Of a stretch of DNA of 64,000 bases, positions 23,264-58,129 are shown piece after piece. Made by a program: the position numbers and the translations under genes. The notes beneath the pieces were generated by a model. It searched no databases, was not told where the DNA came from, and saw only the letters and a list, made by a program, of their open reading frames with translations. This DNA is from Armatimonadaceae bacterium (GTDB lineage Bacteria > Armatimonadota > Armatimonadia > Armatimonadales > Armatimonadaceae), in assembly GCA_030447685.1 (NCBI GenBank), contig JAUJOK010000014.1, positions 9,781-73,780 on the forward strand, in the 5' to 3' direction. Numbering within the stretch: position 1 is the stretch's first letter; every line of letters begins with the position of its first letter.

Positions 23264-25006
23264 ATGTTGTTCCAGTCGCCGCGCACTGCTGTTTTTCCTA
23301 TCGTCGCTGCCATCGGGGCGGTGTGGCTCTGTCTCGCCCTGCTGTACCCCGCGCCGGGTATCACGGCAGAGTGGTACCTGCTGGCGGGCCTTCTGCTTTT
23401 CCTGGCCCGCGCTTTGCCCGTGACCTCCACCCGCGAGCGCCCTGTCACCTTTGTCGCGGCGGTGGTTTGCGCGGGAACCGTGGTGGTGGGACCGTGGGCG
23501 GCGGGAACTCTGGCGCTGGGCATTTACGTTGTGGACTCCCTCCTTTTCCGGCGGCAGAACCTCTGGCACGACCTGGAAGACAACGTTCTCTGCACGCTTG
23601 CCACGGCTCCTCTGGCGGTTCTGTATCATCTGTTTTCCCTGCCAGTGCCGCTCCCAGGCGTCCATCTGCGATTTCTGGCCGTTCTCGTTCCCGGCGCTAT
23701 TTTATACTTCGTCTGCACCGCTGCGCCTTTGCTGCTGGCGCTTCGGTTCGCCACACCCGCGCGGCGCGAGGACGTGCGGATGACTCTGGCGGCACAGACC
23801 ACGACATTTTTTGCGGGGCTTCTGCTTGTCGGTCTGCTGATCGGATTGCGGGAAGACAATTTTCTGGTGGGTTTACTGGTGTTTGCCATTAGCACAGCAG
23901 CGATTGTCGGAGCGATCCGCGCGACAATGGAACTGAGCACTCTGCGAAAGCAGGTTCAGGCAACGGAAGTGCTGGGGCGGCAGGCTGTCGAGGCACAGGA
24001 CGAAGGCGCGTTGCTGGCCCATCTTCTGGCGGCGGCGCGCGATCTGGTCGCCTTCGATCAAGCGGCTATCTGGGCGACGGATCCAAGCGACGCGCGCCTG
24101 GAGATTCGCGCCGCGTGGCCGGAACGAATAAGGACGGATCTGCCGGAATCGCTGGAGTTTGGCGAGGGAATCGTGGGGCGCGTGGCCGAGCGACGGCGCG
24201 GCATCATCATTGCCGCCGGCAGTGACCCGCGCTGGCGCGGAGCGGTCGTCGCGCCGGGACTAAGCGCAAAAATGACATCGGCGCTGGTGGTGCCGCTTAC
24301 CACGGCGGAGCGCACGGTCGGCGTCGCCCTGTTCGCCCACACCGACCCGGGCCGGTACGCGCCCCGCGACATGAAGCTGATGCAATCGGTCGCTAATCTG
24401 GTCGCAAGCGCCATCGAGAACGTCCGCCTGCACCAGAACCTGCGCGCTCTGGCGGTCACGGATGAACTCACCGGACTTTTGAACCGCCGCCGCCTCCAGC
24501 AGATATTGACCGAGGAGGTGTGGCGTGCGCGGCGGTATGAGCGCCCGCTTTCAGTAATTCTCTGTGATGTGGACAACTTCAAGCAGTATAATGATACCTA
24601 TGGGCACCCACAGGGCGACGAGGTGCTGCGCCGCGTGGCGCGCGTTTTGAAGAACAGCACGCGCACCGTCGATAGCGTCGCCCGCTATGGTGGTGAAGAG
24701 TTCTGCGTGATCCTGCCCGAAACGGGCCGCCTCCAGGCTGAGCGCATGGCCGAGCGGCTTCGCCTCGACATGGAGCAGGCCGCCTTCCCCGGCGAAGGCG
24801 GCGCCGATACCGAACAAAGAACCATGAGCTTTGGCGTCGCTTCCTATCCAGAAGATATGCGTGACCCGGAGCAGCTTATCCCGCTTGCCGATGCTGCCCT
24901 GTACCGGGCGAAGCGCGAAGGTAAGAACCAGGTTCAGGGAGTGCGAAGCGCGCCTGCCACGGCACCCGGCCCGGCACGCCGCTCGCGCCGCATCGCCTCG
25001 CATTAA
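23264..25006 (+). CDS. membrane GAF-GGDEF diguanylate cyclase
   Basis: 580 residues. Six or more membrane helices fill residues about 8-230. A GAF domain (about 245-395) and a GGDEF domain (about 405-565) follow. The active site is RYGGEEFCV, which should make cyclic di-GMP. The inhibitory I-site RxxD (RTVD) lies five residues before GGEEF, so product feedback is expected. The metal-binding Asp is in ILCDVDNFKQYND. Cyclic di-GMP often drives exopolysaccharide synthesis, and the BY-kinase-like gene lies 1.7 kb away. The sigma-factor gene starts 24 bp after its stop on the same strand. Confidence 0.93.
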   Translation: MLFQSPRTAVFPIVAAIGAVWLCLALLYPAPGITAEWYLLAGLLLFLARALPVTSTRERPVTFVAAVVCAGTVVVGPWAAGTLALGIYVVDSLLFRRQNLWHDLEDNVLCTLATAPLAVLYHLFSLPVPLPGVHLRFLAVLVPGAILYFVCTAAPLLLALRFATPARREDVRMTLAAQTTTFFAGLLLVGLLIGLREDNFLVGLLVFAISTAAIVGAIRATMELSTLRKQVQATEVLGRQAVEAQDEGALLAHLLAAARDLVAFDQAAIWATDPSDARLEIRAAWPERIRTDLPESLEFGEGIVGRVAERRRGIIIAAGSDPRWRGAVVAPGLSAKMTSALVVPLTTAERTVGVALFAHTDPGRYAPRDMKLMQSVANLVASAIENVRLHQNLRALAVTDELTGLLNRRRLQQILTEEVWRARRYERPLSVILCDVDNFKQYNDTYGHPQGDEVLRRVARVLKNSTRTVDSVARYGGEEFCVILPETGRLQAERMAERLRLDMEQAAFPGEGGADTEQRTMSFGVASYPEDMRDPEQLIPLADAALYRAKREGKNQVQGVRSAPATAPGPARRSRRIASH

Positions 25007-25030
25007 ACAGGCTTTTCCGGTTTTTCTTCT

Positions 25031-25843
25031 ATGTCCGCAGTACACCCGACGCATGACTCCGAAGCTTCCGACGCCTGGCCTGTCGTGCGCGCCCTGACAA
25101 GAGCGCGTAAGGACGGCACACCCTATTCGCGTGAGCCGCATACGGAAGCGCAGATACGGCGTCTATGCGCAATGGCGGAGCGGGAGCGGTATGCCTGCTG
25201 CGAAATAGGCGACCGAAATCACCCGGATTTCGTGGGAGAAGAGGCACTGGTCTACTGCCTGCGCGCCTACCAGGCTCAGGGCGACACAGACAGAGCCTGG
25301 CAGATTGCCGAGCGGCTTACCGAGCGTGTGGCCGGGCATATCCGGCGCAAGCTCGCCCGCTGGCGCTTGACGCCCGACGATGCGGATGAGTGCGCGCGGG
25401 ACCTTTTTGCCGCGCTCTACGAGGCCGTTTTTAACAGGGAACCGGCGGCGGAGTTCTGGGAAGTGCGCTTCTGGGTCTGCCTGGATCGCCGCCTGTGGAA
25501 CCTGATCGAAAAGCGTCAGGCCACCGCCGATCAGGAGTGGTCCGGGGCGGAGCGCGAAGATGAGGTGCGGGAAACCGAAGATTCGCTGCTGCGCGTTCCG
25601 GATACGCGGCCCGGCCCGGAGGAACTATTGGAACAGCGGGAAGCGCTCGCTCTGCTGACCGAAAATGAGCGCCTGAGCCTTTATTTATGCCGGGTGGAAG
25701 GCTGGCCGGAAGAGAGCGACGACCCGGAGCGCCCTTCCGCCGCACGCGCCCTCGGGGTGACGGGCCGCACCATCCGCAACTATCTGAGGCGCGCGGAAGC
25801 GAAGCTGAGAGCGTGGGAGCAGGAAAGTAAGGAAGATCGATGA
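25031..25843 (+). CDS. sigma-70-like (ECF-type) RNA polymerase sigma factor
   Basis: 270 residues. Residues about 95-165 resemble sigma region 2 (LTERVAGHIRRKLARWRLTPDDADECARDLFAALYE-like pattern, then EFWEVRFWVCLDRRLWNLI). Residues about 200-262 form region 4 with an HTH (LLTENERLSLYLCR, ARALGVTGRTIRNYLRRAEAKL). The N-terminal 60 residues are extra and charged. The gene overlaps the next by the ATGA arrangement, so it is co-translated with an HTH protein that may control it. No recognisable Shine-Dalgarno lies ahead, which fits coupling to the upstream gene. The promoter specificity is unknown. Confidence 0.78.
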   Translation: MSAVHPTHDSEASDAWPVVRALTRARKDGTPYSREPHTEAQIRRLCAMAERERYACCEIGDRNHPDFVGEEALVYCLRAYQAQGDTDRAWQIAERLTERVAGHIRRKLARWRLTPDDADECARDLFAALYEAVFNREPAAEFWEVRFWVCLDRRLWNLIEKRQATADQEWSGAEREDEVRETEDSLLRVPDTRPGPEELLEQREALALLTENERLSLYLCRVEGWPEESDDPERPSAARALGVTGRTIRNYLRRAEAKLRAWEQESKEDR

Positions 25844-26442
25844 TGAGAAGTACATTACAGGAAAATAACGAAGCCGAGGCCGTTTTGATCGCCTTTGCAC
25901 AGGCTGGGACGGATGCGAACCTGGCGGACTGGACAGGGCGTTACCCGCAATATGCCCGCGATCTGGTACGCCTGGCGGCGGAGCGATGGGAAGGGCCGAA
26001 CACCCTCGCGGCAGAGGATGCCGGAGCGGACGCCCGGATGCTTGCTATCGGGCACGCCGTCCTGAACACCCGCCGCCAAGAGGCGCAGGCCGCGCCGCTG
26101 ACCAGCCTGGTGACGGCGGCAAAGGCACGCGGTCTGGATGCCGAGACAGTGGCCGCGCGCCTGCATCTGCCGGTTGCTTACTTCTGGAAGCTGCATCGCC
26201 GCCTGTTCGCGCCGGATTCGCTTCCGCGCACACTGGTAACGGAGATAGCGCAGGCGCTGGGCAGCACCACCGATGAGGTCGCCGCCTATCTGCGGCAGCA
26301 GCCGACGCTCGCGGCGGGCGCAAGCTACCGCGCCGACACTTCTCCACGGGTTGGGGCACGGGAAGATTTTGCGGCTACTCTGGCCGCCGATTCGGAACTG
26401 ACACCGGCGCAGCGGGCGCGCTGGAGCGAGACGGAGGCGTAG
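25840..26442 (+). CDS. XRE-like HTH protein, possible partner of sigma factor and ImmA protease
   Basis: 200 residues, start ATGATG overlapping the sigma stop. Residues about 18-50 (FAQAGTDANLADWTGRYPQY) resemble the 'W-RYP-YA-DL' segment seen in regulators next to ECF sigma factors. Residues about 87-152 look like a cro/XRE helix-turn-helix (TAAKARGLDAETVAARLHLP, LPRTLVTEIAQALGSTTDEV). The tail is Arg/Ala-rich. ImmA/IrrE proteases typically cut an adjacent XRE-type repressor, and such a protease is the next gene. I infer that this protein is the repressor or anti-sigma of the cluster. No exact family match is claimed. Confidence 0.65.
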   Translation: MMRSTLQENNEAEAVLIAFAQAGTDANLADWTGRYPQYARDLVRLAAERWEGPNTLAAEDAGADARMLAIGHAVLNTRRQEAQAAPLTSLVTAAKARGLDAETVAARLHLPVAYFWKLHRRLFAPDSLPRTLVTEIAQALGSTTDEVAAYLRQQPTLAAGASYRADTSPRVGAREDFAATLAADSELTPAQRARWSETEA

Positions 26443-26448
26443 CGATCC

Positions 26449-27120
26449 GTGGCGGCGGCAAGCGACGGCTGGTCATCGGTGCGGCAGGAAGCCTGCCGCC
26501 GTCGTGCCGCTCTGCTTGGTGACGACAGCAGCGACACTGATGCGGAGACGACGCTTGCCGCCGCCATCCGCGCGGCGGGTCTGGATTGCCATGCCCGCCC
26601 GCCCGATGATGCGCTTTTATCCGGGGCGCATGCTGTCCTCGATACCGAAGCCGAAGCCATCTGGTTCCGCAGCGATCTGCCACCCGAAACACGCCGCCTG
26701 ATAATCGCCCACGAACTGGCCCATCTGTGGCTGCACCACACGGAAGACGGCGAAACGGCCCATCCGGCGGAGGCCGTCTGCCGGACGGAGGCCGTCTGCC
26801 GGTGCGCCGAGTCGGATTTCGAGGAGCCGGAGACGGCCACGCTGGTCGGCTACGGCCCGCGTGAGCGCGGCGAGATTGAAGCCAACATATTCGCCCGTGA
26901 GTTCCTGCTGCCCACCGCGCTGCTCCGCCGGTGGTTCTGGGAAGAGGGCCTCTCTGCCGACGCTATCGCTGAGCGCGCCGGTCTCCCCGCTCCCGCCGTA
27001 CGCTGTGGGAGAGGGGGAGCCGGAGGGGGAAGGCCGAACTGCCTGCGGTATTTCATTCTTCCTCCCCTCTCCCATAGCGTGGGGGAGGGGGTTGGGGGGA
27101 GGGGGCAAATATTCCCTTGA
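26449..27120 (+). CDS. ImmA/IrrE-family zinc metallopeptidase with repeat-derived tail
   Basis: GTG start at 26449, 6 bp after the HTH gene; 223 residues. HEXXH zinc motif HELAHLWLHH at residues 88-97, and the third-ligand region EIEANIFAREFLLP near 142-155, both standard for peptidase M78. Family members cleave XRE repressors (ImmA/ImmR; Deinococcus PprI/DdrO after DNA damage). Residues after about 185 (RCGRGGAGGGRPN onward) are translated from a palindromic repeat, so the natural C-terminus has been replaced. Residues about 105-116 contain a duplicated 6-residue unit (AEAVCR-TEAVCR), from an 18-bp tandem repeat at 26768-26803. Confidence 0.87.
   Translation: MAAASDGWSSVRQEACRRRAALLGDDSSDTDAETTLAAAIRAAGLDCHARPPDDALLSGAHAVLDTEAEAIWFRSDLPPETRRLIIAHELAHLWLHHTEDGETAHPAEAVCRTEAVCRCAESDFEEPETATLVGYGPRERGEIEANIFAREFLLPTALLRRWFWEEGLSADAIAERAGLPAPAVRCGRGGAGGGRPNCLRYFILPPLSHSVGEGVGGRGQIFP
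26981..27107. repeat. palindromic element, type B, copy 1
   Basis: About 127 bp with GC-rich inverted ends around ACGCTGTGGGAGAGG and its near-complement CCTCTCCCATAGCGTGGGG. It shares GAGGGGGAGCC and CACCCCTCTCCCA-like segments with 57997-58129. It covers the 3' end of the ImmA gene and the 5' end of the helicase gene. Confidence 0.65.
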
Positions 27121-29755
27121 CAACAGCCAGCGCGCGGCGGCGTATGCGGAGCGCGGGCCGCTGCTGGTAGGGGCAGGGCCAGGAACGGGAAAGACGCGGA
27201 CGCTGACGGCGCGGGTTTTCCATCTGGTGCGCGAGCGGGGAGAGCGCCCGGAATCACTGCTGGCCCTCACCTTTTCCCGCCGCGCTGCCGAAGAGATGCG
27301 AGAACGGATCGCGGCGGAAGAGCCGGAAATTGCGCGCCGCGCCTTTATCAGCACATTCCACGCCTATGGCCATGACCTGCTGCGCCGTTACTGGCAGGAG
27401 GCGGGCCTGCCGCCGCGCCCGCTTCTGCTGGACCGTACCGATGCGTTCGCCCTGCTGGAGCGGCGCGTCGGGACGCTGGGACTGAATACGCTGCGCTATC
27501 TTCATGACCCGACCTTTCCTTTGCCGGATATTCTCTCCGCCATCACCCGCGCCAAGGAGGACTTGATCGCGCCGGATGAGTTCGCGGCCCGCGCGGCGGC
27601 GTGCGGAGACGAGCGGCTGAAGGAGGTTGCGGCGGTTTATCGGGTTTATGAGGACCTGCTGCGCGAAGCAGGCGCAGTCGATTTCGCCGATCTGGTGGCG
27701 CGGCCCGTGCGCCTGCTTCAAAACAATCCGCGCCTGCTCCACGCCGAGCGGGCGCGATGGCGGCATCTGCTGATAGATGAGTATCAGGACGTAAACCGGG
27801 CAGGCGCGCTTCTGGTTCGCCTGCTGGCCGGAGACGACGGCGCGGGGTTATGGGCGGTCGGCGATCTGCGGCAGGCTATCTATGCCTTTCGCGGCGCATC
27901 CCCGGCCAACGTCTCCGCGTTCGAGACGGATTATCCTACCGGTCGGCGGACGGAACTCGCTGTCAATTACCGTTCCCGACCCAACCTGGTCACGCTTTTC
28001 GGCGCGACGCAACAGCAGCAGCATTCCCGTGGCAGCGAGGACGCGCCCCTCTGGCATGCCTCGCGGGACGGGGAAGCGGCAGCGGTGCTGGCCGTCGCCG
28101 CCGATGACGACGCGCAGGCCATGGGAATCGCCCGGCGAATGCGCCGCTTTACGGACGAGGGCTATTCGTGGGGGCAGCAGGTAGTATTGTGCCGCACGCG
28201 CGCCCAGGCGGCGGCGATGCAGGAGGCGCTGCGGGCGCGGGATGTTCCTGTTCAATCGCAGCAGGAAGGGGGGCTGCTTGCCTGCCCGGACATAAAGACG
28301 CTGCTGATTCTGCTGTCGCGTGCGTTTGAGCCGCACGGCCCGGCCCGACACAGCCTGCCTGATCTGCCTGAAGAGTTGTCGGGCACAGATAACGTCGTAG
28401 CTTTTCTGGCGCAGGCGCTGTTCGGTCCGTATGGCCTGGCGCGGCGCATGGAAAACGGGGCCGCCGTGGCGCGTCTGCTGGCGCTGGCCCAGGCTTTCCA
28501 GGAGCGCGCCTCAATACTCATAGGCGGCGAGGAGACACAGGGACGGGCATTTCTGCGGCATATCCGGCGCATGGCGCGCCTGGGCGGCGTGCCCTTCGAA
28601 GAGGATTCCGCCTGCGAGTCCGATGCCGTTCGCGTCCTGACCGTTCATGCCTCCAAAGGTCTGGAGTTCCCGGTCGTTTTCGTGCCGAATCTGTCTCAGG
28701 GGAAGTTTCCGGCGCGCGGCAGACCGTCGTTGCTTTCTCCACTCCCGCGCTCCGAGGGCGAAACCGAAACCGATGATGGCGAAGAAGAGACACGTCTGTT
28801 CTTTGTCGCCCTGACGCGGGCGCGCGATCACCTTATTCTGTCGCGAGCGGAGCGGTACAACGGACGTTCCGCCGCGGCATCGCCGCTGCTGACCTGCCTG
28901 GACGGCGCGGTAGGTTTACAGCGGGAGGTGTGGGACGCAGCCCCCCCCGCCCCCAGCCGCGCAGCGGCATCTGAGCCGCCCTCCGAGCGTGGGGGTGCCG
29001 GAAGTGTCTCCCCTTCTCCCCAAGCTGGGGAGAGGGGGCCGGGGGGTGAGGGCCGAGGCAGGGGGGGCCAACCCGCTCCTCTCGAAGCCCGTGATGCGGA
29101 ACTCTATCTGCGCTGCCCCCGCCGCTTCTTTTATGAACGGGTACTCGCTCTGCCGCATGCGGAGACGCATCCCTACAGCGGGTTTCAAAAAGCCGTGCGA
29201 CATGCCCTGCGCGCCGCCGGAGAAGGCGCGAACCCGGCGGCGGCTTTCCAGGCCTATTGGCCGCAGGTGGGGCCGGACCCGGCCCACCCGCACGAAGAGA
29301 TTTATCGATTGGCGGCGGAAGAGATCCTCACGAGCCTGCCACCGGAAACGGTTCCGCCGCAGCATCCGGCGACGGCAGTGGAGACGCTGACTGTAGCTCT
29401 GGAGCAGGGAACGCTTTCTGTCCGTCCCGACGTTTCACACGACTCCGCGCGGCTGGAATGTCACACCTTCCGTAAGCCGCCGAAGGAAGACAAAGTCGAA
29501 GTGAGCGGGCGTCACTCGCTGCTTCGCGAAGCCGCCGAGCAGGCTGGCGCGCCGAGCGGGCAGGTCATCCTGCATCTGCGTTATGTCACGGCGGGGCAGA
29601 CGCTTCCCGTCCCGGACAAGCCTGCACAGCGCAAAAAACACCTGGCAAAATACAACGAGGCGCTTCGGGGCATCCGTCTTCAGGTCTTCTCCGCTGCTCC
29701 CGACGATGCCGATGACTGCCCCGCCTGCCCCTACTTTTTCCTCTGCCCGGCGTAG
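27092..29755 (+). CDS. UvrD/Rep-family helicase with C-terminal PD-(D/E)XK-like region
   Basis: The frame is open from 26861, but real homology begins only at DNSQRAAAYAERGPLLVGAG. The start is uncertain; a TTG at 27092 after GGGGAGGGGG, both inside the repeat, is one choice (887 residues). Helicase motifs in order: GAGPGTGKTRTL; TFSRRAAEEMRERI; LLIDEYQDVNRAG; WAVGDLRQAIYAFRG; AVNYRSRPNLV; VHASKGLEFPVVFV; FVALTRARDHLILSRAE. About residue 650 a Pro/Gly stretch encoded by another repeat occurs. The C-terminus (ELYLRCPRRFFYERVL to CPACPYFFLCPA) resembles RecB-type nuclease domains with a Cys-bound Fe-S cluster, but the D-ExK residues are not clear. Likely DNA repair or anti-invader role. Confidence 0.88.
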   Translation: MGGGGKYSLDNSQRAAAYAERGPLLVGAGPGTGKTRTLTARVFHLVRERGERPESLLALTFSRRAAEEMRERIAAEEPEIARRAFISTFHAYGHDLLRRYWQEAGLPPRPLLLDRTDAFALLERRVGTLGLNTLRYLHDPTFPLPDILSAITRAKEDLIAPDEFAARAAACGDERLKEVAAVYRVYEDLLREAGAVDFADLVARPVRLLQNNPRLLHAERARWRHLLIDEYQDVNRAGALLVRLLAGDDGAGLWAVGDLRQAIYAFRGASPANVSAFETDYPTGRRTELAVNYRSRPNLVTLFGATQQQQHSRGSEDAPLWHASRDGEAAAVLAVAADDDAQAMGIARRMRRFTDEGYSWGQQVVLCRTRAQAAAMQEALRARDVPVQSQQEGGLLACPDIKTLLILLSRAFEPHGPARHSLPDLPEELSGTDNVVAFLAQALFGPYGLARRMENGAAVARLLALAQAFQERASILIGGEETQGRAFLRHIRRMARLGGVPFEEDSACESDAVRVLTVHASKGLEFPVVFVPNLSQGKFPARGRPSLLSPLPRSEGETETDDGEEETRLFFVALTRARDHLILSRAERYNGRSAAASPLLTCLDGAVGLQREVWDAAPPAPSRAAASEPPSERGGAGSVSPSPQAGERGPGGEGRGRGGQPAPLEARDAELYLRCPRRFFYERVLALPHAETHPYSGFQKAVRHALRAAGEGANPAAAFQAYWPQVGPDPAHPHEEIYRLAAEEILTSLPPETVPPQHPATAVETLTVALEQGTLSVRPDVSHDSARLECHTFRKPPKEDKVEVSGRHSLLREAAEQAGAPSGQVILHLRYVTAGQTLPVPDKPAQRKKHLAKYNEALRGIRLQVFSAAPDDADDCPACPYFFLCPA
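28941..29068. repeat. palindromic element inside the helicase frame
   Basis: A GC-skewed stretch with a hairpin at its core (CTTCTCCCC-AAGC-TGGGGAGAGGGGG) and flanks rich in CCCC and GGGG. It is related in style to the elements at 26981 and 57997. It is read through in frame and gives a low-complexity linker between the helicase and nuclease-like parts (SPSPQAGERGPGGEG). Confidence 0.55.
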
Positions 29756-29830
29756 GCTGTCTTCCGCCCTTCCCCTCCGCACCGTAGTTTCCAGGGTGAA
29801 TCCGTGGCTTTATGCAAAGGAAAGACACCC

Positions 29831-31117
29831 ATGCTCAAAACAGACAATATTTCGTCCTTCCCCGCCCAGTTTTCCGTTGTCCGCTCTGCCGTGCTGAACC
29901 GTTCCGACCTGACGGCGAACAACAACAAGTTCTATGTGCTGGAGCTGCATGAGGCGGCGGGTAAATATCGCCTGTTTACGCACTATGGGCGTGTCGGGAC
30001 GGTGGGAATGCGCGAGGCGCGCTTTGCGGATGACCGGGAAGCGCTGGAGCGCGAGTTTGAGCGGATTCTGCGGGAAAAAACCGGCCCGAAAAAAGGCTAT
30101 GTTCCGGTGGATGTCGCCAAAGCGGTTGTCGGCAGTGAGGCGCTGCAAACACAGACGGCGGATAGCTATGCCCAAACGCGCGGCGTGCGCTGCCCCTCAG
30201 CGCTGCACCCCTCCGTCGCGCGCTTTATCGACCATATCTATGATGAATCGAAGACGGAACTGGTGCGCCGCATCGACACGCCGCTGGGCGCGCTGACCAG
30301 GGAGCAGATCGAGCGCGGCACGGACAAGCTGCGCGCGTTGCGCTTCGCCATCGCGCGTGGGCGCGAGGATCGTATCCTGGCGCTGTCATCGCAGTACTAC
30401 TCGCTCGTCCCCCACCGCTTCGGCAGGCGTATAGCATTGGAGGAGGCGGCCATCAGCAGCATAGAGAAGGCGGACGAGGAAGAAGAACTTTTGCAGCTTA
30501 TGCGCGACGTTTTCTTTGTTCAGGGAGCGATGGATGCCGAGACCGACCGCAAGTACCGTGCGCTCGGCGCGCAGATTGAAGCGATGGAGGCGGACGACCC
30601 GGAAACGCGCCGGGTGACGCGGCAGATTCTGGATACGCAGTCGGCCCGCCACGGCTTCAACATCAAGGTCGGCCAGGTTTTTCGCGCCTGCCTTCCCGAC
30701 GAGCGCGCCCGTTTCGATGCCGCGCCCGGCAACAATCGCTTGCTGTTCCACGGCTCCCGAAATTCCAATATGGTCGGTATTCTTTCGCGCGGACTTCTGG
30801 TAGCGCCCAAAAACGTGCCCGTCAGTGGTTATATGTTCGGCAAGGGTATCTACTTCGCCGACCAGAGCACCAAGTCCGCGCAGTATTCCGGGCTGTGGGA
30901 CGACGGCAAGCGCGGCGGTGTCGGTTACCTGTTTCTGGCCGATGTCGCGCTGGGCCGCATCAAAAAACAGCGGGTGCCCGTTTACCGGGAAGAAGCGCCG
31001 GACGGCTTCCATTCCGTGCAGGGCTGCAAAGGCCTGTGCCTGCTCCATAACGAGTTTATCATCTATCGGCGGGAACAGTGCACTATCCGTTACGTCGCCG
31101 AAATTAAGAAAGCCTGA
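29831..31117 (+). CDS. bacterial poly(ADP-ribose) polymerase with WGR domain
   Basis: 428 residues from ATG 29831 with AAAGGAAAG ahead. WGR domain about 20-100 (NNKFYVLELHEAAGKYRLFT, HYGRVGTVG), which in PARPs senses DNA ends. The helical regulatory domain spans about 120-255 (SSQYYSLVPHRFGRR). The ART catalytic domain spans about 265-428 with the H-Y-E triad: His307 (LLFHGSRNSN), Tyr341 (GYMFGKGIYFAD) and Glu408 (LLHNEFIIYRR). The His-Tyr spacing of 34 equals that of human PARP1. It should polymerise ADP-ribose from NAD+ when bound to DNA breaks. It is unusual in bacteria (known from Herpetosiphon). It follows the helicase-nuclease gene by 75 bp and is 5 bp before the PolX-like gene. Confidence 0.95.
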   Translation: MLKTDNISSFPAQFSVVRSAVLNRSDLTANNNKFYVLELHEAAGKYRLFTHYGRVGTVGMREARFADDREALEREFERILREKTGPKKGYVPVDVAKAVVGSEALQTQTADSYAQTRGVRCPSALHPSVARFIDHIYDESKTELVRRIDTPLGALTREQIERGTDKLRALRFAIARGREDRILALSSQYYSLVPHRFGRRIALEEAAISSIEKADEEEELLQLMRDVFFVQGAMDAETDRKYRALGAQIEAMEADDPETRRVTRQILDTQSARHGFNIKVGQVFRACLPDERARFDAAPGNNRLLFHGSRNSNMVGILSRGLLVAPKNVPVSGYMFGKGIYFADQSTKSAQYSGLWDDGKRGGVGYLFLADVALGRIKKQRVPVYREEAPDGFHSVQGCKGLCLLHNEFIIYRREQCTIRYVAEIKKA

Positions 31118-31122
31118 ACCAG

Positions 31123-31650
31123 ATGAGCCGGGACATGGACACTTCGTATATCGATCAAAAAGGCCGCACACGCTGGCAGCGCAACGACGAGATTGCCGAA
31201 AAGCTCAAGGAGCTGGCGGACTTCCTCGTTATTGGCGGTTACGACGAATCGCACGCCGCGCGCTATCCCCGGCTGGCCTATGCAATCTCCCGGCACCCGG
31301 AATCTATTGTCCACCTGCACCACCAGGGACGCCTGAGCGAGATACCCGGCGTCGGCGGAACTATCGCGACAATCATCGGGGAGCTTATCGAAACCGGAAC
31401 CTGCCATAAGATGGAAGCGCCGATACAGGAAGACCGCCTGAACCCGCCGCGCACCGTGCTGGAGATAACCGCTATTCCCCGCTTCGGGGCGAAGATGGCG
31501 CGGACGCTGTATCAGGAATACGGGATCGACAGTCTGGACAGCCTGAAAAATGCTCTGGATGCGGGTGTTCTGGACGCCGTGCCAGGGATGGGCAGAAAAA
31601 CCGTGGAAACCGTGCGGCAGCATCTGGCCGAGCGCGGGAAAGACGGATAA
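31123..31650 (+). CDS. stand-alone PolX N-terminal (8-kDa plus HhH) protein
   Basis: 175 residues. Residues about 20-95 match the N-terminal 8-kDa domain of family X polymerases (IAEKLKELADFLVIGG, first HhH IPGVGG at 74-79). Residues about 105-170 match the next helix-hairpin-helix units (IPRFGAKMARTLYQEYGIDS and VPGMGRKTVETV). The sequence stops exactly where the nucleotidyltransferase core of PolX should start, so it has no polymerase or PHP domain. In DNA polymerase beta this part binds 5'-phosphates at gaps and carries the lyase. The gene starts 5 bp after the PARP stop, so they are one operon. A role as DNA-gap sensor or dRP lyase partner of PARP is inferred. ATG 31135 is an alternative start. 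Confidence 0.8.
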   Translation: MSRDMDTSYIDQKGRTRWQRNDEIAEKLKELADFLVIGGYDESHAARYPRLAYAISRHPESIVHLHHQGRLSEIPGVGGTIATIIGELIETGTCHKMEAPIQEDRLNPPRTVLEITAIPRFGAKMARTLYQEYGIDSLDSLKNALDAGVLDAVPGMGRKTVETVRQHLAERGKDG

Positions 31651-32627: not shown

Positions 32628-32707
32628 GCTGTTCTTTTCCGAATCGCCGCCGCTTGCCGGAGTAACTGCAATGAACATGCTTTACTTTGGGAGGAGGCAC
32701 GGAAGAT

Positions 32708-33454
32708 ATGAATACAGCAGCGACAACGAGCGGCGGCGACAGCGCACAGGCGGCGATGACGACACTTGTTGAGGAGGCTGTGGAGGCGAAGCTGAGGTCG
32801 CGCGATCCTTTTACCGCGCTCGACATCTCCAACGAACTGAAGGCCCGCAGCTTTCCCGTACGGCACGGCGAGGTAGCAGTGGTGGTGCGCGACATCTATG
32901 CATCTGGCGCGATGGGCCATTACGATTACGACCGGCGCTTGATCGATGTGGTGACTGAGTCGGGGAAAAAGCGGACGCAGGCGTTTCTGTATCTGCACGA
33001 CGCGGTCAAGGAGCGGCAATACACGGCGCGCAGCCAGGACGCGCTGCCGCCGGTCCCCCCGGATCAGGCCCGCAGTCTGGATGATGCGGTCGCGGCAGGG
33101 AACCCACTGTCACCGCTCGCGACGATTCATCAGACAGGGAAGACTTCACGCCCCCGCGCCCTGTCTCCGGCAAAGCGTTCGCGGCATCGACGGGACGGCG
33201 CGCTGCCGATACCGCGCGCCCTGGTACAGCAGGCCGGGTGGCAGGTCGGAGCGACGCTGGCGCTTTCGGTGAACGGGACAGCGGGATTGAGGCTGGAACC
33301 GGCGAGCAACGGGAGTGGTGATGCGGCTATCGTCCGGGTCTGGGGGGACCTTCGGGTGCGGGTGTGCCGGACGAAGCTGCGAGGCACGGCGCTTACGATA
33401 GGCAGTGTGCGTTTCCAGGTGGAAAAGAGCACGCTGCGGGCTGAGCCGGAATAA
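32708..33454 (+). CDS. hypothetical protein with AbrB-like C-terminal segment
   Basis: 248 residues from ATG 32708 with GGAGGAGG 11-18 nt ahead. The N-terminal half (about 15-110) is helical and charged; the segment DPFTALDISNELKARSFPVR resembles a winged-helix. A basic Pro-rich linker (about 135-165) follows. Residues about 165-205 (LPIPRALVQQAGWQVGATLAL) look like a SpoVT/AbrB swapped-hairpin strand set, and the end is beta-rich. A DNA-binding role is plausible, but I do not recognise a named family. Confidence 0.6.
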   Translation: MNTAATTSGGDSAQAAMTTLVEEAVEAKLRSRDPFTALDISNELKARSFPVRHGEVAVVVRDIYASGAMGHYDYDRRLIDVVTESGKKRTQAFLYLHDAVKERQYTARSQDALPPVPPDQARSLDDAVAAGNPLSPLATIHQTGKTSRPRALSPAKRSRHRRDGALPIPRALVQQAGWQVGATLALSVNGTAGLRLEPASNGSGDAAIVRVWGDLRVRVCRTKLRGTALTIGSVRFQVEKSTLRAEPE

Positions 33455-33594: not shown

Positions 33595-35325
33595 TTATCC
33601 GCCGTTGGATGCCGCTGTTCCTGCCAGCATCTCGCGGGCGTGCTGCAAAACCGTGTCGGTGAGGCGTGCGCCGCCGAGCATACGGGCGACCTCCTGAACG
33701 CGGCCCTCGGCGTCCAGGTGCGTCACCTGCACGACGGTGCGCTCTTTGTGAACGCGCTTCTCGATATACAGGTGCTCGCTGCCGCGCGAAGCGATCTGCG
33801 GCAGGTGCGTGATGCACAGAATCTGCGCGGTTTCACCCAGCTTCGCCAGTTTCTCGGCAAGCACGCTCCCGGTGCGCCCGCCGATGCCGGTATCCACCTC
33901 ATCGAACACCAGCGTCGGGACGGAAAGAATCCGTGCCAGCACCGATTTCATCGCCAGCATGACCCGGCTGATCTCGCCGCCGGAGGCGATTTTCGCCAGC
34001 GGTTTCAGCGGCTCGCCAGGGTTAGGGGAAAGCAGGAACTCGACATGATCGGCACCTTTGGCGGTAACCGGGCGCGGCTCCACGGCGACGGAAAAGCGCG
34101 TGGCGGTCATCGCCAGGTCGGCAAGCTCCTTCATCACGGCTTTGGCGAAGGGGGCGGCGGCTTTTTTGCGCGCTTCGGTCAGCTTCGCAGCCCGCGCCTC
34201 CAGTTCCCGGCCCGACGACTCGCACAGCGTTTCCAGTTCCGCAATACGCGATTCCGCGTTTTCCAGCGTGTCCAATCGCTCCGCGATCTCCTCGCGGTAG
34301 CACAGCACCTCTTCCAACGTGTCGCCGTACTTTCGCTTCAGCGTCCGCAGTGTATCCAGGCGCGTTTCTATCTGCTCCAGCCGCTCCGGATTGAACTCTA
34401 TCTCATCCCGGTAGGTGCGAACATCGCGGGCGGCCTCCTCGGCGGCATACAGGGCGTTTTGGAGCGATTCCAGCAACGGGCTGAGCCGCTCGTCCAACTT
34501 CGCCGCGTGCTCGATCTCCGCCACCGCCGTGGTCAGGCCGTCTAAAGCGCCGCCGCTTTCTCCCATAGACGAGGTTCGTCCCCGCGCTGCCGCACCGCCG
34601 CCGCCACCGTGCAGCGCGGCATATGCCCCGCCTGCCGCCTCGTGCAGCTTTTCCGCGCTTGCCAGCCGTATCCGCTCCGCCAGAAGCTCTTCCTCCTCGG
34701 CGGGTTTGGGAGCGGCGGCGTCTATCTCGTCGCGCTGGAACTGAAGCAGATCGAGGGTGCGGGCGCGCTCGCGGGCGTCCTGTTTGAGCGCGGCCAGTTC
34801 CCGCGCCGCCGCCTGCGCATGGGAATGCGCCTCTACCACTGCCGCCTTGAGTTCGAGCGTCTTCGGGCCGCACCAGGCATCCAGAATATCGGCGTGGCGC
34901 TCCACGGCAAGCAGCGACTGGTGCTCATGCTGGCCGTGGATGTCCACCAGGGCATCACCCAGTGTCTTCAGCATACCTACCGTCGCGGGCCGCCCATTGA
35001 TCCGCACGGACGATTTGCCGGAGGCGGAAAGGTCCCGCGACAAAAGCAGCAGTCCGTCTTCCGACTCGACGCCCGACGCTTCCAGCGCCTCGCGCAGCCG
35101 CTCGTTGTCGTCCTCGACCGTGAAAGCCGCTTCGACCCGCGCCCGATCCGCGCCGTGACGCACGGCATCCGCACCCATGCGCTCGCCCAGCACCAGGGCC
35201 ATCGCATCCATCAGGATGGATTTCCCCGCGCCCGTTTCGCCGGTCAGGATGTTCAGGCCCGGCCCGAACGCCAGGCGCAGCCTATCCACCAGGGCAAAGT
35301 TTTCGATGGAGATTTCGGTAAGCAT
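33595..35325 (-). CDS. recN: DNA repair protein RecN
   Basis: 576 residues, usual length. SMC-like ATPase of double-strand-break repair, which gathers DNA ends for RecA. N-terminus MLTEISIENFALVDRL; Walker A GETGAGKS near residue 30; long coiled coils about 150-370; ABC signature ASGGEISRVMLAMK; Walker B PTLVFDEVDTGIGG; D-loop TGSVLAEKLAKL; His switch CITHLPQIA. A promoter sits so close that the mRNA may be leaderless. It lies last in the run nadK, small membrane gene, recN; NAD kinase and RecN are neighbours in many bacteria. Confidence 0.96.
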   Translation of the reverse strand: MLTEISIENFALVDRLRLAFGPGLNILTGETGAGKSILMDAMALVLGERMGADAVRHGADRARVEAAFTVEDDNERLREALEASGVESEDGLLLLSRDLSASGKSSVRINGRPATVGMLKTLGDALVDIHGQHEHQSLLAVERHADILDAWCGPKTLELKAAVVEAHSHAQAAARELAALKQDARERARTLDLLQFQRDEIDAAAPKPAEEEELLAERIRLASAEKLHEAAGGAYAALHGGGGGAAARGRTSSMGESGGALDGLTTAVAEIEHAAKLDERLSPLLESLQNALYAAEEAARDVRTYRDEIEFNPERLEQIETRLDTLRTLKRKYGDTLEEVLCYREEIAERLDTLENAESRIAELETLCESSGRELEARAAKLTEARKKAAAPFAKAVMKELADLAMTATRFSVAVEPRPVTAKGADHVEFLLSPNPGEPLKPLAKIASGGEISRVMLAMKSVLARILSVPTLVFDEVDTGIGGRTGSVLAEKLAKLGETAQILCITHLPQIASRGSEHLYIEKRVHKERTVVQVTHLDAEGRVQEVARMLGGARLTDTVLQHAREMLAGTAASNGG

Positions 35326-35333
35326 TCCTGCCC

Positions 35334-35362
35334 ATTATACCGCGCCGCACACGATGGTACAA
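35334..35362 (-). promoter_or_regulatory. recN promoter, near-leaderless
   Basis: Minus strand: TTGTAC at 35362-35357, 17-nt spacer, TATAAT at 35339-35334. The ATG begins 8 nt after the -10 box, so the mRNA would have a leader of about 0-3 nt. No LexA-type box was recognised here. Confidence 0.65.
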
Positions 35363-35401
35363 ACAGTTTGCCTATATGAGCGAAGAGGACGCCCCTGGTT
35401 T

Positions 35402-35722
35402 TCAGCCCCCGCGCTTCTGCCCCGCCACGCCCTGCTGCTCGGCAGCCGCCTGGCGAATATAGGGCAATATCATGTGCATCAGTATCTGTCCACAGATGAC
35501 CCCACCGATGCCGCCGCCAAGGAAAGCGCCGACCTGCGAAAAGCCGTGCGCCGCACCGATGCTCACGCCGGTTCCGCCACAAATACCAGCGAATGCAATG
35601 CCAAGCCATGCCTGCCAATGCCGATACGCCTTCGGATAACTCAGGCGCCAGATACGGCCCCTTTCCTTGCGGGACAAAGGCGCAAGTTCCGGAATGGCTC
35701 GGAGGGTCCAATAGATCGGCAT
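35402..35722 (-). CDS. small membrane protein, unknown
   Basis: 106 residues. AGGAG lies 7 nt before the ATG. A basic N-terminus (SRKERGRIWRLSYPKAYRHW) is followed by two hydrophobic Gly-rich segments (GIAFAGICGGTGVSIGAA and VGAFLGGGIGGVICGQILMH), typical of a small two-helix membrane protein. The C-terminal tail is Gln/Gly-rich. It lies between nadK and recN on the same strand, 24 bp after nadK. No family recognised. Confidence 0.65.
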   Translation of the reverse strand: MPIYWTLRAIPELAPLSRKERGRIWRLSYPKAYRHWQAWLGIAFAGICGGTGVSIGAAHGFSQVGAFLGGGIGGVICGQILMHMILPYIRQAAAEQQGVAGQKRGG

Positions 35723-35746
35723 GGAAGGATCTCCTCGGAAGCTCTG

Positions 35747-36613
35747 TCAGGACTGAAGGCGCTCGCCGTAGCGCCAGCGCGCGCGTATCTTATGATAAAA
35801 GTTAGGGCCGCCGACGGTGAGCAGGCGGACGTTGTAGGGAGCGCGGCGCACTTCGACACTGTCTCCGGCGTGCAGGGAAACCTCTACCTGACCGTCTACC
35901 GTCGCAATGACATTATCCCGCTCGACAGCGGAAACCAATGTCAAAGAAACCGTTTCGGTATCGGGGACGATAAGCGAGCGGGCGTTGAGCGTGTGCGGGC
36001 ATACCGGGGTGATGAGCAGCACGGGCGCGGACGGCTGGACGAGCGGGCCGCCCGCCGACAGCGAGTAGCCGGTGGAACCGGTGGGCGAAGCGACGATTAC
36101 GCCGTCCGCGGCGTAGGTGGCGACTTCATCCGAACCGATAGCAGTTCGGACATGAACCATGCGGGCAGCGCCGGACTTGACAACGACATCATTCAGGCCC
36201 AGCGGCAGCTCTTCCCGCCCGTTTTCTCGGCGCACCGCGCAAGACAGCATCATTCGCTCGTCTATGCCTGCCTCGCCTGCAATGACTCGCAGGGTAGCCG
36301 ACATCAGGTCATCCGGGAGCGCCTCAGCTATGAAGCCGAACCGGCCCAGATGAATGCCGAGGATAGGGGTACCGCAGGGGGCCAGAGTGCGAGCGGCGGC
36401 AAGCAGCGTGCCGTCACCACCGAGCACCACGGCAAAATCCGACGCGGCAATCTCGGCCTGATCGGCGCGGCAGCCGAGTTCGCCAATCCGCTCCGCCGTG
36501 GAGGGCGCGGCGCGCACGGCGACGCCTTGCTCCAGAAGCGCCCGCGTCAGCCGCTCCGCCGCTGCAACCGCTTCCGGCTTGTCCTCGTTTATCAGCAGTC
36601 CAACGGTCGGCAT
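35747..36613 (-). CDS. nadK: NAD kinase
   Basis: 288 residues. Makes NADP from NAD and ATP or polyphosphate. Motifs: VVLGGDGTLLAAAR (the GGDGT phosphate site), GLNDVVV, DGVIVASPTGSTGYSLSAGGP and the C-terminal DGQ (ATVDGQVEVSLHAGD). N-terminus PTVGLLINEDKPEA is typical of the family. It is followed by a small membrane gene and recN, and preceded by the TPR gene 55 bp away. Confidence 0.95.
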   Translation of the reverse strand: MPTVGLLINEDKPEAVAAAERLTRALLEQGVAVRAAPSTAERIGELGCRADQAEIAASDFAVVLGGDGTLLAAARTLAPCGTPILGIHLGRFGFIAEALPDDLMSATLRVIAGEAGIDERMMLSCAVRRENGREELPLGLNDVVVKSGAARMVHVRTAIGSDEVATYAADGVIVASPTGSTGYSLSAGGPLVQPSAPVLLITPVCPHTLNARSLIVPDTETVSLTLVSAVERDNVIATVDGQVEVSLHAGDSVEVRRAPYNVRLLTVGGPNFYHKIRARWRYGERLQS

Positions 36614-57996: not shown

Positions 57997-58129
57997 AGCC
58001 CCCTCCCCCGGCCCCTCCCCCACGCTGTGGGGGAGGGGGAGCCAGAAGAAGGAGACGGAAAGCCTGACGAAACATTTCCCTCTTTCACCCCTCTCCCACA
58101 GCGTGGGGGAGGGGCCGGGGGAGGGGGCT
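57997..58129. repeat. palindromic element, type B, copy 2
   Basis: About 133 bp, ends AGCCCCCTCCCCCGGCCCC and GGGGCCGGGGGAGGGGGCT (near-perfect inverted repeat), with inner hairpins around CCCACGCTGTGGG and CCCACAGCGTGGG. It lies inside the gltB-gltD operon, between the two reading frames. Confidence 0.8.

What the first reader, a model, noticed from the sequence alone, without database searches (positions are those of the whole stretch)
25031..31650. Candidate DNA-damage response island: sigma, XRE-HTH, IrrE-type protease, helicase-nuclease, PARP, PolX-N
Six genes in a row on one strand, most with overlaps or small gaps. Sequence shows an ECF-like sigma factor coupled by ATGA to an HTH protein, then an ImmA/IrrE protease, a UvrD helicase with a RecB-like C-terminus, a WGR-PARP with the full H-Y-E triad and a PolX N-terminal protein. 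Known: IrrE/PprI cleaves the XRE repressor DdrO in Deinococcus after DNA damage; PARP and DNA polymerase beta meet in eukaryotic base-excision repair. Inference: the protease destroys the HTH regulator, freeing the sigma factor to drive the repair genes.
Basis: partly seen in the sequence, partly recalled or inferred. Interest (0 to 1): 0.8.

Follow-up and report, generated by a model that had tools for sequence, protein, structure and literature searches.

The report
Helicase-fused protease with its own sigma factor
Three of the six genes form a widespread bacterial alarm module, in which a sigma factor, a DNA-binding protein and a protease fused to a DNA helicase normally sit upstream of ubiquitin-like immune operons, and here it sits next to a PARP gene, which offers a testable new way for bacteria to turn DNA damage into gene expression.

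Summary
The six genes are real and lie on one strand, but the six-gene island is not conserved. What is conserved is a three-gene module: an ECF-type sigma factor, an XRE-type HTH protein, and one long protein with an IrrE/CapP-type M78 protease, a UvrD helicase and a RecB/AddB-like C-terminal domain that keeps its Fe-S cysteines but has lost the nuclease catalytic residues. All 44 fusions found in 42 genomes of the phylum are single reading frames; only the window's copy is split, by a dispersed palindromic repeat. Outside the phylum the module sits directly upstream of ubiquitin-like conjugation operons (BilABCD or multiubiquitin-ThiF) in 9 of 12 loci and 12 of 13 sampled plasmids. A shared promoter (TTTCCGGTTT-N13-CGATT) precedes both the sigma gene and the ubiquitin operon and co-varies within loci; its family variant occurs once in the whole 5-Mb genome, at window 25014-25042. 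Most likely mechanism (inferred): the helicase-tethered protease responds to damaged or foreign DNA, cleaves the HTH protein and frees the sigma factor. PARP is linked only in the sister genus; PolX-N is linked nowhere else.

The parts
25014..25042 (+). Predicted promoter of the module sigma factor, TTTCCGGTT-N15-CAGTA
   Evidence: Only perfect match of the family pattern in the whole 5.0-Mb genome; 1 match in window at <=1 mismatch, 0.07 expected; geometry TTTCCG-N19-AGT in 14 of 29 Armatimonadota-phylum loci, shuffles 0.045
25031..25843 (+). ECF-type sigma factor (270 aa; true start may be the GTG near 25085 because the promoter overlaps the first codons)
   Evidence: conserved first gene of the module
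25840..26442 (+). HTH protein: N-terminal YPxYA-type region, XRE-type HTH and conserved C-terminal PPxLAxGASYRSD...F..AL tail; predicted protease substrate and sigma inhibitor or repressor
   Evidence: CapH and DdrO among the best fold matches
26449..27120 (+). M78 (IrrE/CapP-type) protease part; HExxH at 26710-26724; last helix with the family's invariant Gln replaced by repeat-derived sequence
   Evidence: Pfam Peptidase_M78 1.4e-12; alignments; junction
26995..27115 (.). Dispersed palindromic repeat that separates protease and helicase frames
   Evidence: 59 matches in own genome; long stem, z -2.6; relatives are one ORF
26861..29755 (+). UvrD-type helicase ORF (family homology starts about 27101); second, in-frame low-complexity repeat at about 28930-29070; C-terminal RecB/AddB-like domain with Cys codons at 29114, 29717, 29726, 29744
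   Evidence: UvrD 1.7e-64, PDDEXK_1 5.4e-4; invariant Cys, lost catalytic residues; fold PcrA/UvrD and AdnB/AddAB
29804..31117 (+). WGR-PARP; lineage-specific neighbour, possibly in the same transcript
   Evidence: linked only in G003; no terminator-like site on + strand between 28730 and 33538
31123..31650 (+). PolX N-terminal-like HhH protein without polymerase domain; neighbour, not part of the conserved module

Best explanation
The core is a DNA-stress controller in three parts. The M78:UvrD protein is sensor and protease in one chain: the UvrD/AdnB-like motor with its catalytically dead, Fe-S-bearing RecB-type domain engages broken, single-stranded or foreign DNA, which activates the attached protease. 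The protease cleaves the HTH protein encoded next to it, as CapP cleaves CapH and IrrE cleaves DdrO. The HTH protein had held the ECF sigma factor inactive (or had blocked its promoter); after cleavage the sigma factor transcribes its own operon from TTTCCGG-type promoters (positive feedback) and the effector genes that carry the same promoter. In most bacteria outside the phylum the effector is a ubiquitin-like conjugation operon (BilABCD or multiubiquitin-ThiF). In the window's family that operon is absent, the module stands alone on the chromosome and may feed a few DNA-repair genes; in the window and one sister genus a PARP gene has been added downstream. SHOWN here: conserved gene order, fusion, shared and co-varying promoters, adjacency to ubiquitin-like operons. 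INFERRED: cleavage of the HTH protein, DNA as the trigger, sigma inhibition by the HTH protein, PARP and repair genes as targets.
For: Module SIG-HTH-M78:UvrD in family, order and other families of the phylum and in Chloroflexota, Acidobacteriota, Proteobacteria, Gemmatimonadota and Cyanobacteria. M78 active-site residues, helicase motifs and four Fe-S cysteines conserved. M78 part matches solved CapP (3.6e-6) and IrrE (2.2e-5); HTH model matches CapH N-domain (TM 0.76 on target, 2.1 A, 30% identity) and DdrO. Module directly upstream of Bil or multiubiquitin operons; at least 15 of 25 BilD-bearing plasmids carry it, and two without it have HTH + ImmA/IrrE in the same slot. Promoter motif found independently upstream of sigma and upstream of the ubiquitin operon; cross-scores 12.3 vs 4.4 +/- 0.57 and 13.8 vs 6.0 +/- 0.58 in shuffles; -35 and -10 co-vary within loci, 0 of 100,000 permutations. 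Family promoter unique in own genome. In G005 perfect promoters with the same short leader precede ung, a RibD-like and a DUF1579 gene; TTCCGG-N18-AGT is kept upstream of recD2 in four genomes. CapH+CapP is described as ssDNA-activated and as controlling Bub operons (PMC13373217).
Against: No experiment; cleavage, DNA sensing and sigma inhibition are untested. The HTH protein may be a DNA-binding repressor instead of an anti-sigma. A site upstream of sigma was found in only 11 of 21 ubiquitin-type loci at score >= 10 (start codons uncertain), although the site upstream of the ubiquitin gene was found in all 21. The repair-gene regulon is suggestive only: ung has the promoter in G005 but not clearly in the other orthologues, and several other pattern hits are not repair genes. 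In genus g6 sigma-HTH and the fusion are about 5 to 17 kb apart. The window's own copy is split and has lost a conserved helix.
Confidence: 0.65

Rival explanations
1. The HTH protein is a DNA-binding repressor like CapH or DdrO and does not touch the sigma factor; protease cleavage derepresses the sigma promoter, and the sigma factor then amplifies.
For: XRE fold closest to CapH and DdrO, both of which bind DNA; M78 partners are usually XRE repressors (established knowledge).
Against: The shared promoter element is asymmetric and of ECF type, not an evident palindromic operator; HTH is translationally coupled to the sigma gene, as anti-sigma genes often are.
Confidence: 0.3
2. The M78:UvrD protein is itself an anti-phage effector (Gabija GajB-like or AdnAB-like DNA processor) and the ubiquitin-like genes are separate cargo of the same defence islands.
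For: Helicase scores well against GajB and DRT-associated helicases; module and Bil/multiubiquitin operons travel on plasmids.
Against: The C-terminal nuclease is catalytically dead; the two promoters share one type and co-vary; CapH+CapP-like pairs occupy the same slot.
Confidence: 0.15
3. One reading: a six-gene DNA-damage island in which PARP and PolX-N are integral effectors with the helicase-nuclease.
For: Gaps of 48 bp and 5 bp, no terminator-like site between; PARP also follows the module in G003, together with a macrodomain protein.
Against: PARP orthologues in only 3 of 61 genomes, linked in the two sister genera only; PolX-N linked nowhere else; no second copy of the promoter in front of PARP.
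Confidence: 0.12
4. In the window's organism the module is decaying: the repeat insertion broke the sensor protease, and the neighbourhood of PARP is accidental; or the split is an assembly error in a G-rich repeat of a draft genome.
For: Only split copy among 45 in the phylum; invariant Gln helix lost; repeat has 59 matches in the genome; the two frames overlap by 260 bp, so a small length difference inside the repeat could join them.
Against: Active-site and helicase motifs and the unique promoter are intact.
Confidence: 0.35

Closest known systems
CapH + CapP controllers of CBASS/Bub/Bil operons (ssDNA-activated M78 protease cleaving an XRE repressor)
   Same: M78 protease (CapP is the best solved M78 match), XRE partner with CapH-like HTH, position directly upstream of ubiquitin-like immune operons.
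   Different: Protease is fused to a UvrD helicase and a dead Fe-S RecB-type domain; a dedicated ECF sigma factor with its own promoter pair is added.
IrrE/PprI-DdrO of Deinococcus
   Same: M78 protease and XRE partner; DdrO among the fold matches.
   Different: No helicase fusion or sigma factor there; here no evidence for a genome-wide palindromic RDRM regulon.
AdnAB/AddAB/RecBCD and UvrD/PcrA motors
   Same: SF1A motor; AdnB is the closest full architecture in the fold search; C-terminal C...CxxCx5C cysteines as in Fe-S nucleases.
   Different: N-terminal protease; nuclease catalytic residues lost; not in an addAB or recBCD operon.
CapK + CapS and CapW controllers
   Same: DNA-damage-responsive controllers placed upstream of Bub and Bil operons (PMC13373217).
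   Different: Kinase/STAS or WYL proteins, no protease, helicase or sigma factor.
BilABCD (bacterial ISG15-like) operons
   Same: Downstream genes in many loci score as BilA, BilB, BilC, BilD.
   Different: The upstream three-gene controller is not part of the described four-gene system; none in the window's genome or family.

Membership tests
M78 (IrrE/CapP) metallopeptidase | HExxH zinc motif plus downstream E..AN ligand region | tested here: met
   Window HELAH and EIEANIFA; invariant in A1/A4
CapH+CapP type controller | M78 protease next to XRE partner upstream of an immune operon | tested here: met
   Outside the phylum, 9 of 12 contigs and 12 of 13 plasmids; not met in the window itself (no immune operon)
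CapH+CapP type controller | ssDNA-activated cleavage of the XRE partner | not testable with these tools
   Needs purified proteins
CapH+CapP type controller | Two separate small proteins without helicase or sigma factor | tested here: not met
   Fusion to UvrD and sigma gene in nearly every locus
ECF sigma factor | Similarity to sigma regions 2 and 4 of ECF sigma factors | tested here: met
   TIGR02937 3.7e-5, below its cut-off; profile vs 6in7 2.7e-6 over positions 78-244
ECF sigma factor | Autoregulated -35/-10 promoter shared with target operon | tested here: met
   (sequence evidence only)
XRE-family regulator | XRE HTH fold | tested here: met
   AF2 model, Foldseek CapH NTD, DdrO, SinR (E-values weak, 0.07-1)
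RecB/AddB PD-(D/E)xK nuclease | Catalytic D...(D/E)xK residues | tested here: not met
   Canonical DxK replaced by RxRTG and similar, not conserved
RecB/AddB PD-(D/E)xK nuclease | Four Fe-S cysteines C...CxxCx5C | tested here: met
   C878, C1083, C1086, C1092 of L026 invariant; present in window
WGR-PARP | WGR, regulatory and catalytic domains with H-Y-E | tested here: met
   residues visible in the translation
DNA polymerase X | Polymerase catalytic domain | tested here: not met
   175 aa with HhH domains only; a full PolX of 583 aa exists elsewhere in the genome
LexA replacement (sole SOS system) | LexA absent | tested here: not met
   LexA DNA-binding domain found in own genome and all 20 relatives

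The most novel reading that the evidence does not exclude
A so far undescribed class of DNA-damage or phage sensors in which a DNA motor carries its own signalling protease and directly releases a dedicated sigma factor: a further controller of bacterial ubiquitin-like immunity that, in the lineage of the window, has become a chromosomal repair switch (recD2, ung, PARP) parallel to LexA.
Probability: 0.45. Interest if true: 0.87.

Novelty: new variant of a known kind. Interest (0 to 1): 0.76.

Why it matters
It would connect recognition of DNA structure by a helicase to transcription through one polypeptide, without RecA and LexA. It predicts the promoter and therefore the regulon, gives a concrete controller for BilABCD and multiubiquitin operons whose induction is poorly understood, and can be tested in culturable carriers. 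It also shows that genes annotated 'hypothetical, hypothetical, ATP-dependent helicase' upstream of ubiquitin-like operons form one regulatory unit.

Tried and rejected
Six-gene co-occurrence was tested with HTH, PARP and PolX-N searches in 61 genomes and rejected. LexA replacement rejected. An active nuclease was rejected on the alignments. Phage origin: no phage record holds more than 52% of the M78:UvrD query, helicase part only. A sigma-70 promoter inside the region is at chance level. A second copy of the module promoter in front of PARP was looked for and not found. ung as a conserved target was tested in ten genomes and holds clearly in G005 only. Literature searches for the module found no description; the key Bub papers (PMC12145246, PMC12885553) are not held, so a mention there cannot be excluded.
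Full report
WHAT IS IN THE WINDOW. Six + strand ORFs lie at 25031-31650 as described. Domain searches give a weak ECF sigma, a weak XRE-like HTH, an M78 protease (1.4e-12), a UvrD helicase (1.7e-64) with a marginal PDDEXK_1 end, WGR-PARP_reg-PARP, and HHH_8+HHH_5. The window is contig C71 of a 5.0-Mb draft genome that is 87.6% complete.

THE CONSERVED UNIT IS NOT THE SIX GENES. The HTH protein was found in 17 of 61 related genomes, in 11 of the 12 of its own family. Around it the order sigma-HTH-M78-UvrD recurs in the family, the order and other families of the phylum. The PARP orthologue (>60% identity) occurs in three of 61 genomes: here, in sister genus G003 directly after the module and followed by a macrodomain protein, and in G017, which has no module. 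The standalone PolX-N orthologue of G003 is on another contig; the other hits are full-length PolX, apart from a truncated one.

PROTEASE AND HELICASE ARE ONE PROTEIN. In the relatives the M78 domain and the helicase are one reading frame of about 1,000-1,200 aa. A profile over the junction found 44 such fusions in 42 of 291 genomes of the phylum, none with an internal stop; only the window's copy is split, into open frames of 225 and 1016 aa (my count of the listed matches that span both domains). The split coincides with a palindromic, G-rich repeat of about 110 bp that has 59 matches in the genome and replaces the last helix of the protease, which holds an invariant Gln in relatives. A genuine split, decay or an assembly slip in the repeat cannot be told apart here.

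THE C-TERMINUS IS NOT AN ACTIVE NUCLEASE. Across 9 fusions of the phylum and 12 others the helicase motifs and four cysteines of an AddB/Cas4-like Fe-S site are conserved, and so is the zinc motif, but the D...DxK residues are not (canonical DxKTG reads RxRTG or similar). The predicted structure of a fusion (L046; pLDDT 81, pTM 0.82) matches PcrA/UvrD and, over a longer stretch, AdnB and AddAB.

OUTSIDE THE PHYLUM THE MODULE PRECEDES UBIQUITIN-LIKE OPERONS. Sigma and HTH genes precede all 12. Nine are followed directly by ubiquitin-like conjugation genes: BilABCD in seven, BilAB up to the contig end in one, multiubiquitin-ThiF in one; PADLOC scores are decisive (BilD 1.6e-168, BilC 4e-68, BilB 1e-60, BilA 7e-51). 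On plasmids 88 records hold at least 80% of the M78:UvrD query; of 13 records inspected (chosen from the best 30, not at random), all have sigma and HTH genes and 12 have Bil (5) or multiubiquitin (7) genes next. Starting from the other side, at least 15 of 25 BilD-bearing plasmids carry the fusion a few kb upstream. Of six Bil plasmids inspected from that side, two have an HTH plus standalone ImmA/IrrE pair in the same slot, three have insertion sequences or fragments there, and Xanthomonas pXCV183 has the full module. The module is thus interchangeable in position with CapH+CapP-like pairs; CapH+CapP is reported as ssDNA-activated and as a controller of Bub operons (PMC13373217). In the window's phylum true BilD occurs in two genomes, one of them next to the module; the family of the window has none.

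A DEDICATED PROMOTER. The three module genes are closely packed, but a gap of 73-230 bp separates the fusion from the ubiquitin gene. Motif discovery by expectation maximisation on these gaps alone gave TTTCCGGTTT-N13-CGATT, and on the regions upstream of the sigma gene alone TTTCCGnTTC-N13-CGAgT. Each model scores the other set far above dinucleotide shuffles (12.3 vs 4.4 +/- 0.57; 13.8 vs 6.0 +/- 0.58; 30 shuffles each). In the 11 loci with both sites, the two sites match each other better than sites of other loci (-35: 95 vs 79.3 expected; -10: 72 vs 51.3; 0 of 100,000 permutations each). This is what one sigma factor reading two promoters should leave. In the window's phylum the geometry TTTCCG-N19-AGT precedes or overlaps the annotated sigma start in 14 of 29 loci against 0.045 in shuffles. 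The family pattern has exactly one match in the window's 5.0-Mb genome, at 25014-25042.

A POSSIBLE REPAIR REGULON. In the 98%-complete relative G005 the pattern occurs four times, each with an ATG 6-9 bases after it: sigma, uracil-DNA glycosylase, a RibD_C protein and a DUF1579 protein. A looser pattern that includes the start codon gives 46 places in 12 genomes against 6 for the reversed control (the control does not keep ATG, so this overstates the excess); repair-related ones include recD2 in G000 and G005, SRAP in G002, dprA in G012 and a NADAR protein in G007, besides clearly unrelated genes. TTCCGG-N18-AGT is kept upstream of recD2 in all four family genomes where it was found, with diverged spacers (the spacing in G002 and G006 read by eye from that output). 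ung has it clearly only in G005. I treat this as a lead, not a result.

THE HTH PROTEIN. Its model (pLDDT 80; HTH core above 90) matches XRE domains, CapH N-domain (2.1 A, 30% identity) and DdrO among the best, with weak E-values. The proteins share a conserved tail ending F..AL...WL, a candidate cleavage or sigma-binding segment.

MECHANISM. Best supported: DNA-engaged motor, activated protease, HTH cleavage, release of sigma, positive feedback and effector transcription. Shown: architecture, order, promoters. Inferred: trigger, cleavage, inhibition. LexA is present in all 21 genomes tested, so this is a parallel system, not a replacement.

NOVELTY. The regulator logic (M78 protease plus XRE partner upstream of immune operons) is known; the fusion to a DNA motor and the dedicated sigma factor with paired promoters were not found described in the searched literature, with the caveat that the two central Bub papers are not held. 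I file it as a new variant of a known kind.

Noticed in passing
window 26995-27115, 58012-58114 and about 28930-29070: Dispersed palindromic G-rich repeats, 59 matches in the genome for the first, found inside or between coding regions, one in frame within the helicase linker; G003 has a comparable repeat-rich break at the same linker.
   Followed up: partly
L035 9178-11574; L039-L042: Module variants in which the M78 protease is fused to a degenerate or much shorter P-loop ATPase (about 645-799 aa), still with sigma and HTH genes upstream.
   Followed up: no
L025 1052-1519: Macrodomain protein directly after PARP downstream of the module in G003: ADP-ribose writer and possible eraser side by side.
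   Followed up: no
window 32687-33451 and L025 139-1041: A 255-aa protein with a weak MazE/AbrB-like C-terminus follows the module in both sister genera; function unknown.
   Followed up: no
window 33595-36613, - strand: recN and what looks like an NAD kinase gene lie convergent to the operon.
   Followed up: no
window 23264-25006: A GAF-GGDEF diguanylate cyclase gene ends 25 bp before the sigma ORF, also next to it in G003; the sigma promoter lies just downstream of its stop codon.
   Followed up: partly
G000:C61:592-1818 (L161): The genome has a second, distant PARP (31% identity), similar to those of several family members.
   Followed up: no
L317 6267-10383 and 10962-17227: Paraburkholderia plasmid Bil operon with HTH + ImmA/IrrE, next to SRAP, error-prone polymerase and ImuA genes.
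   Followed up: no
L198 14199-14456: A small WGR-domain protein is encoded after the multiubiquitin operon in Sinorhizobium mexicanum.
   Followed up: no
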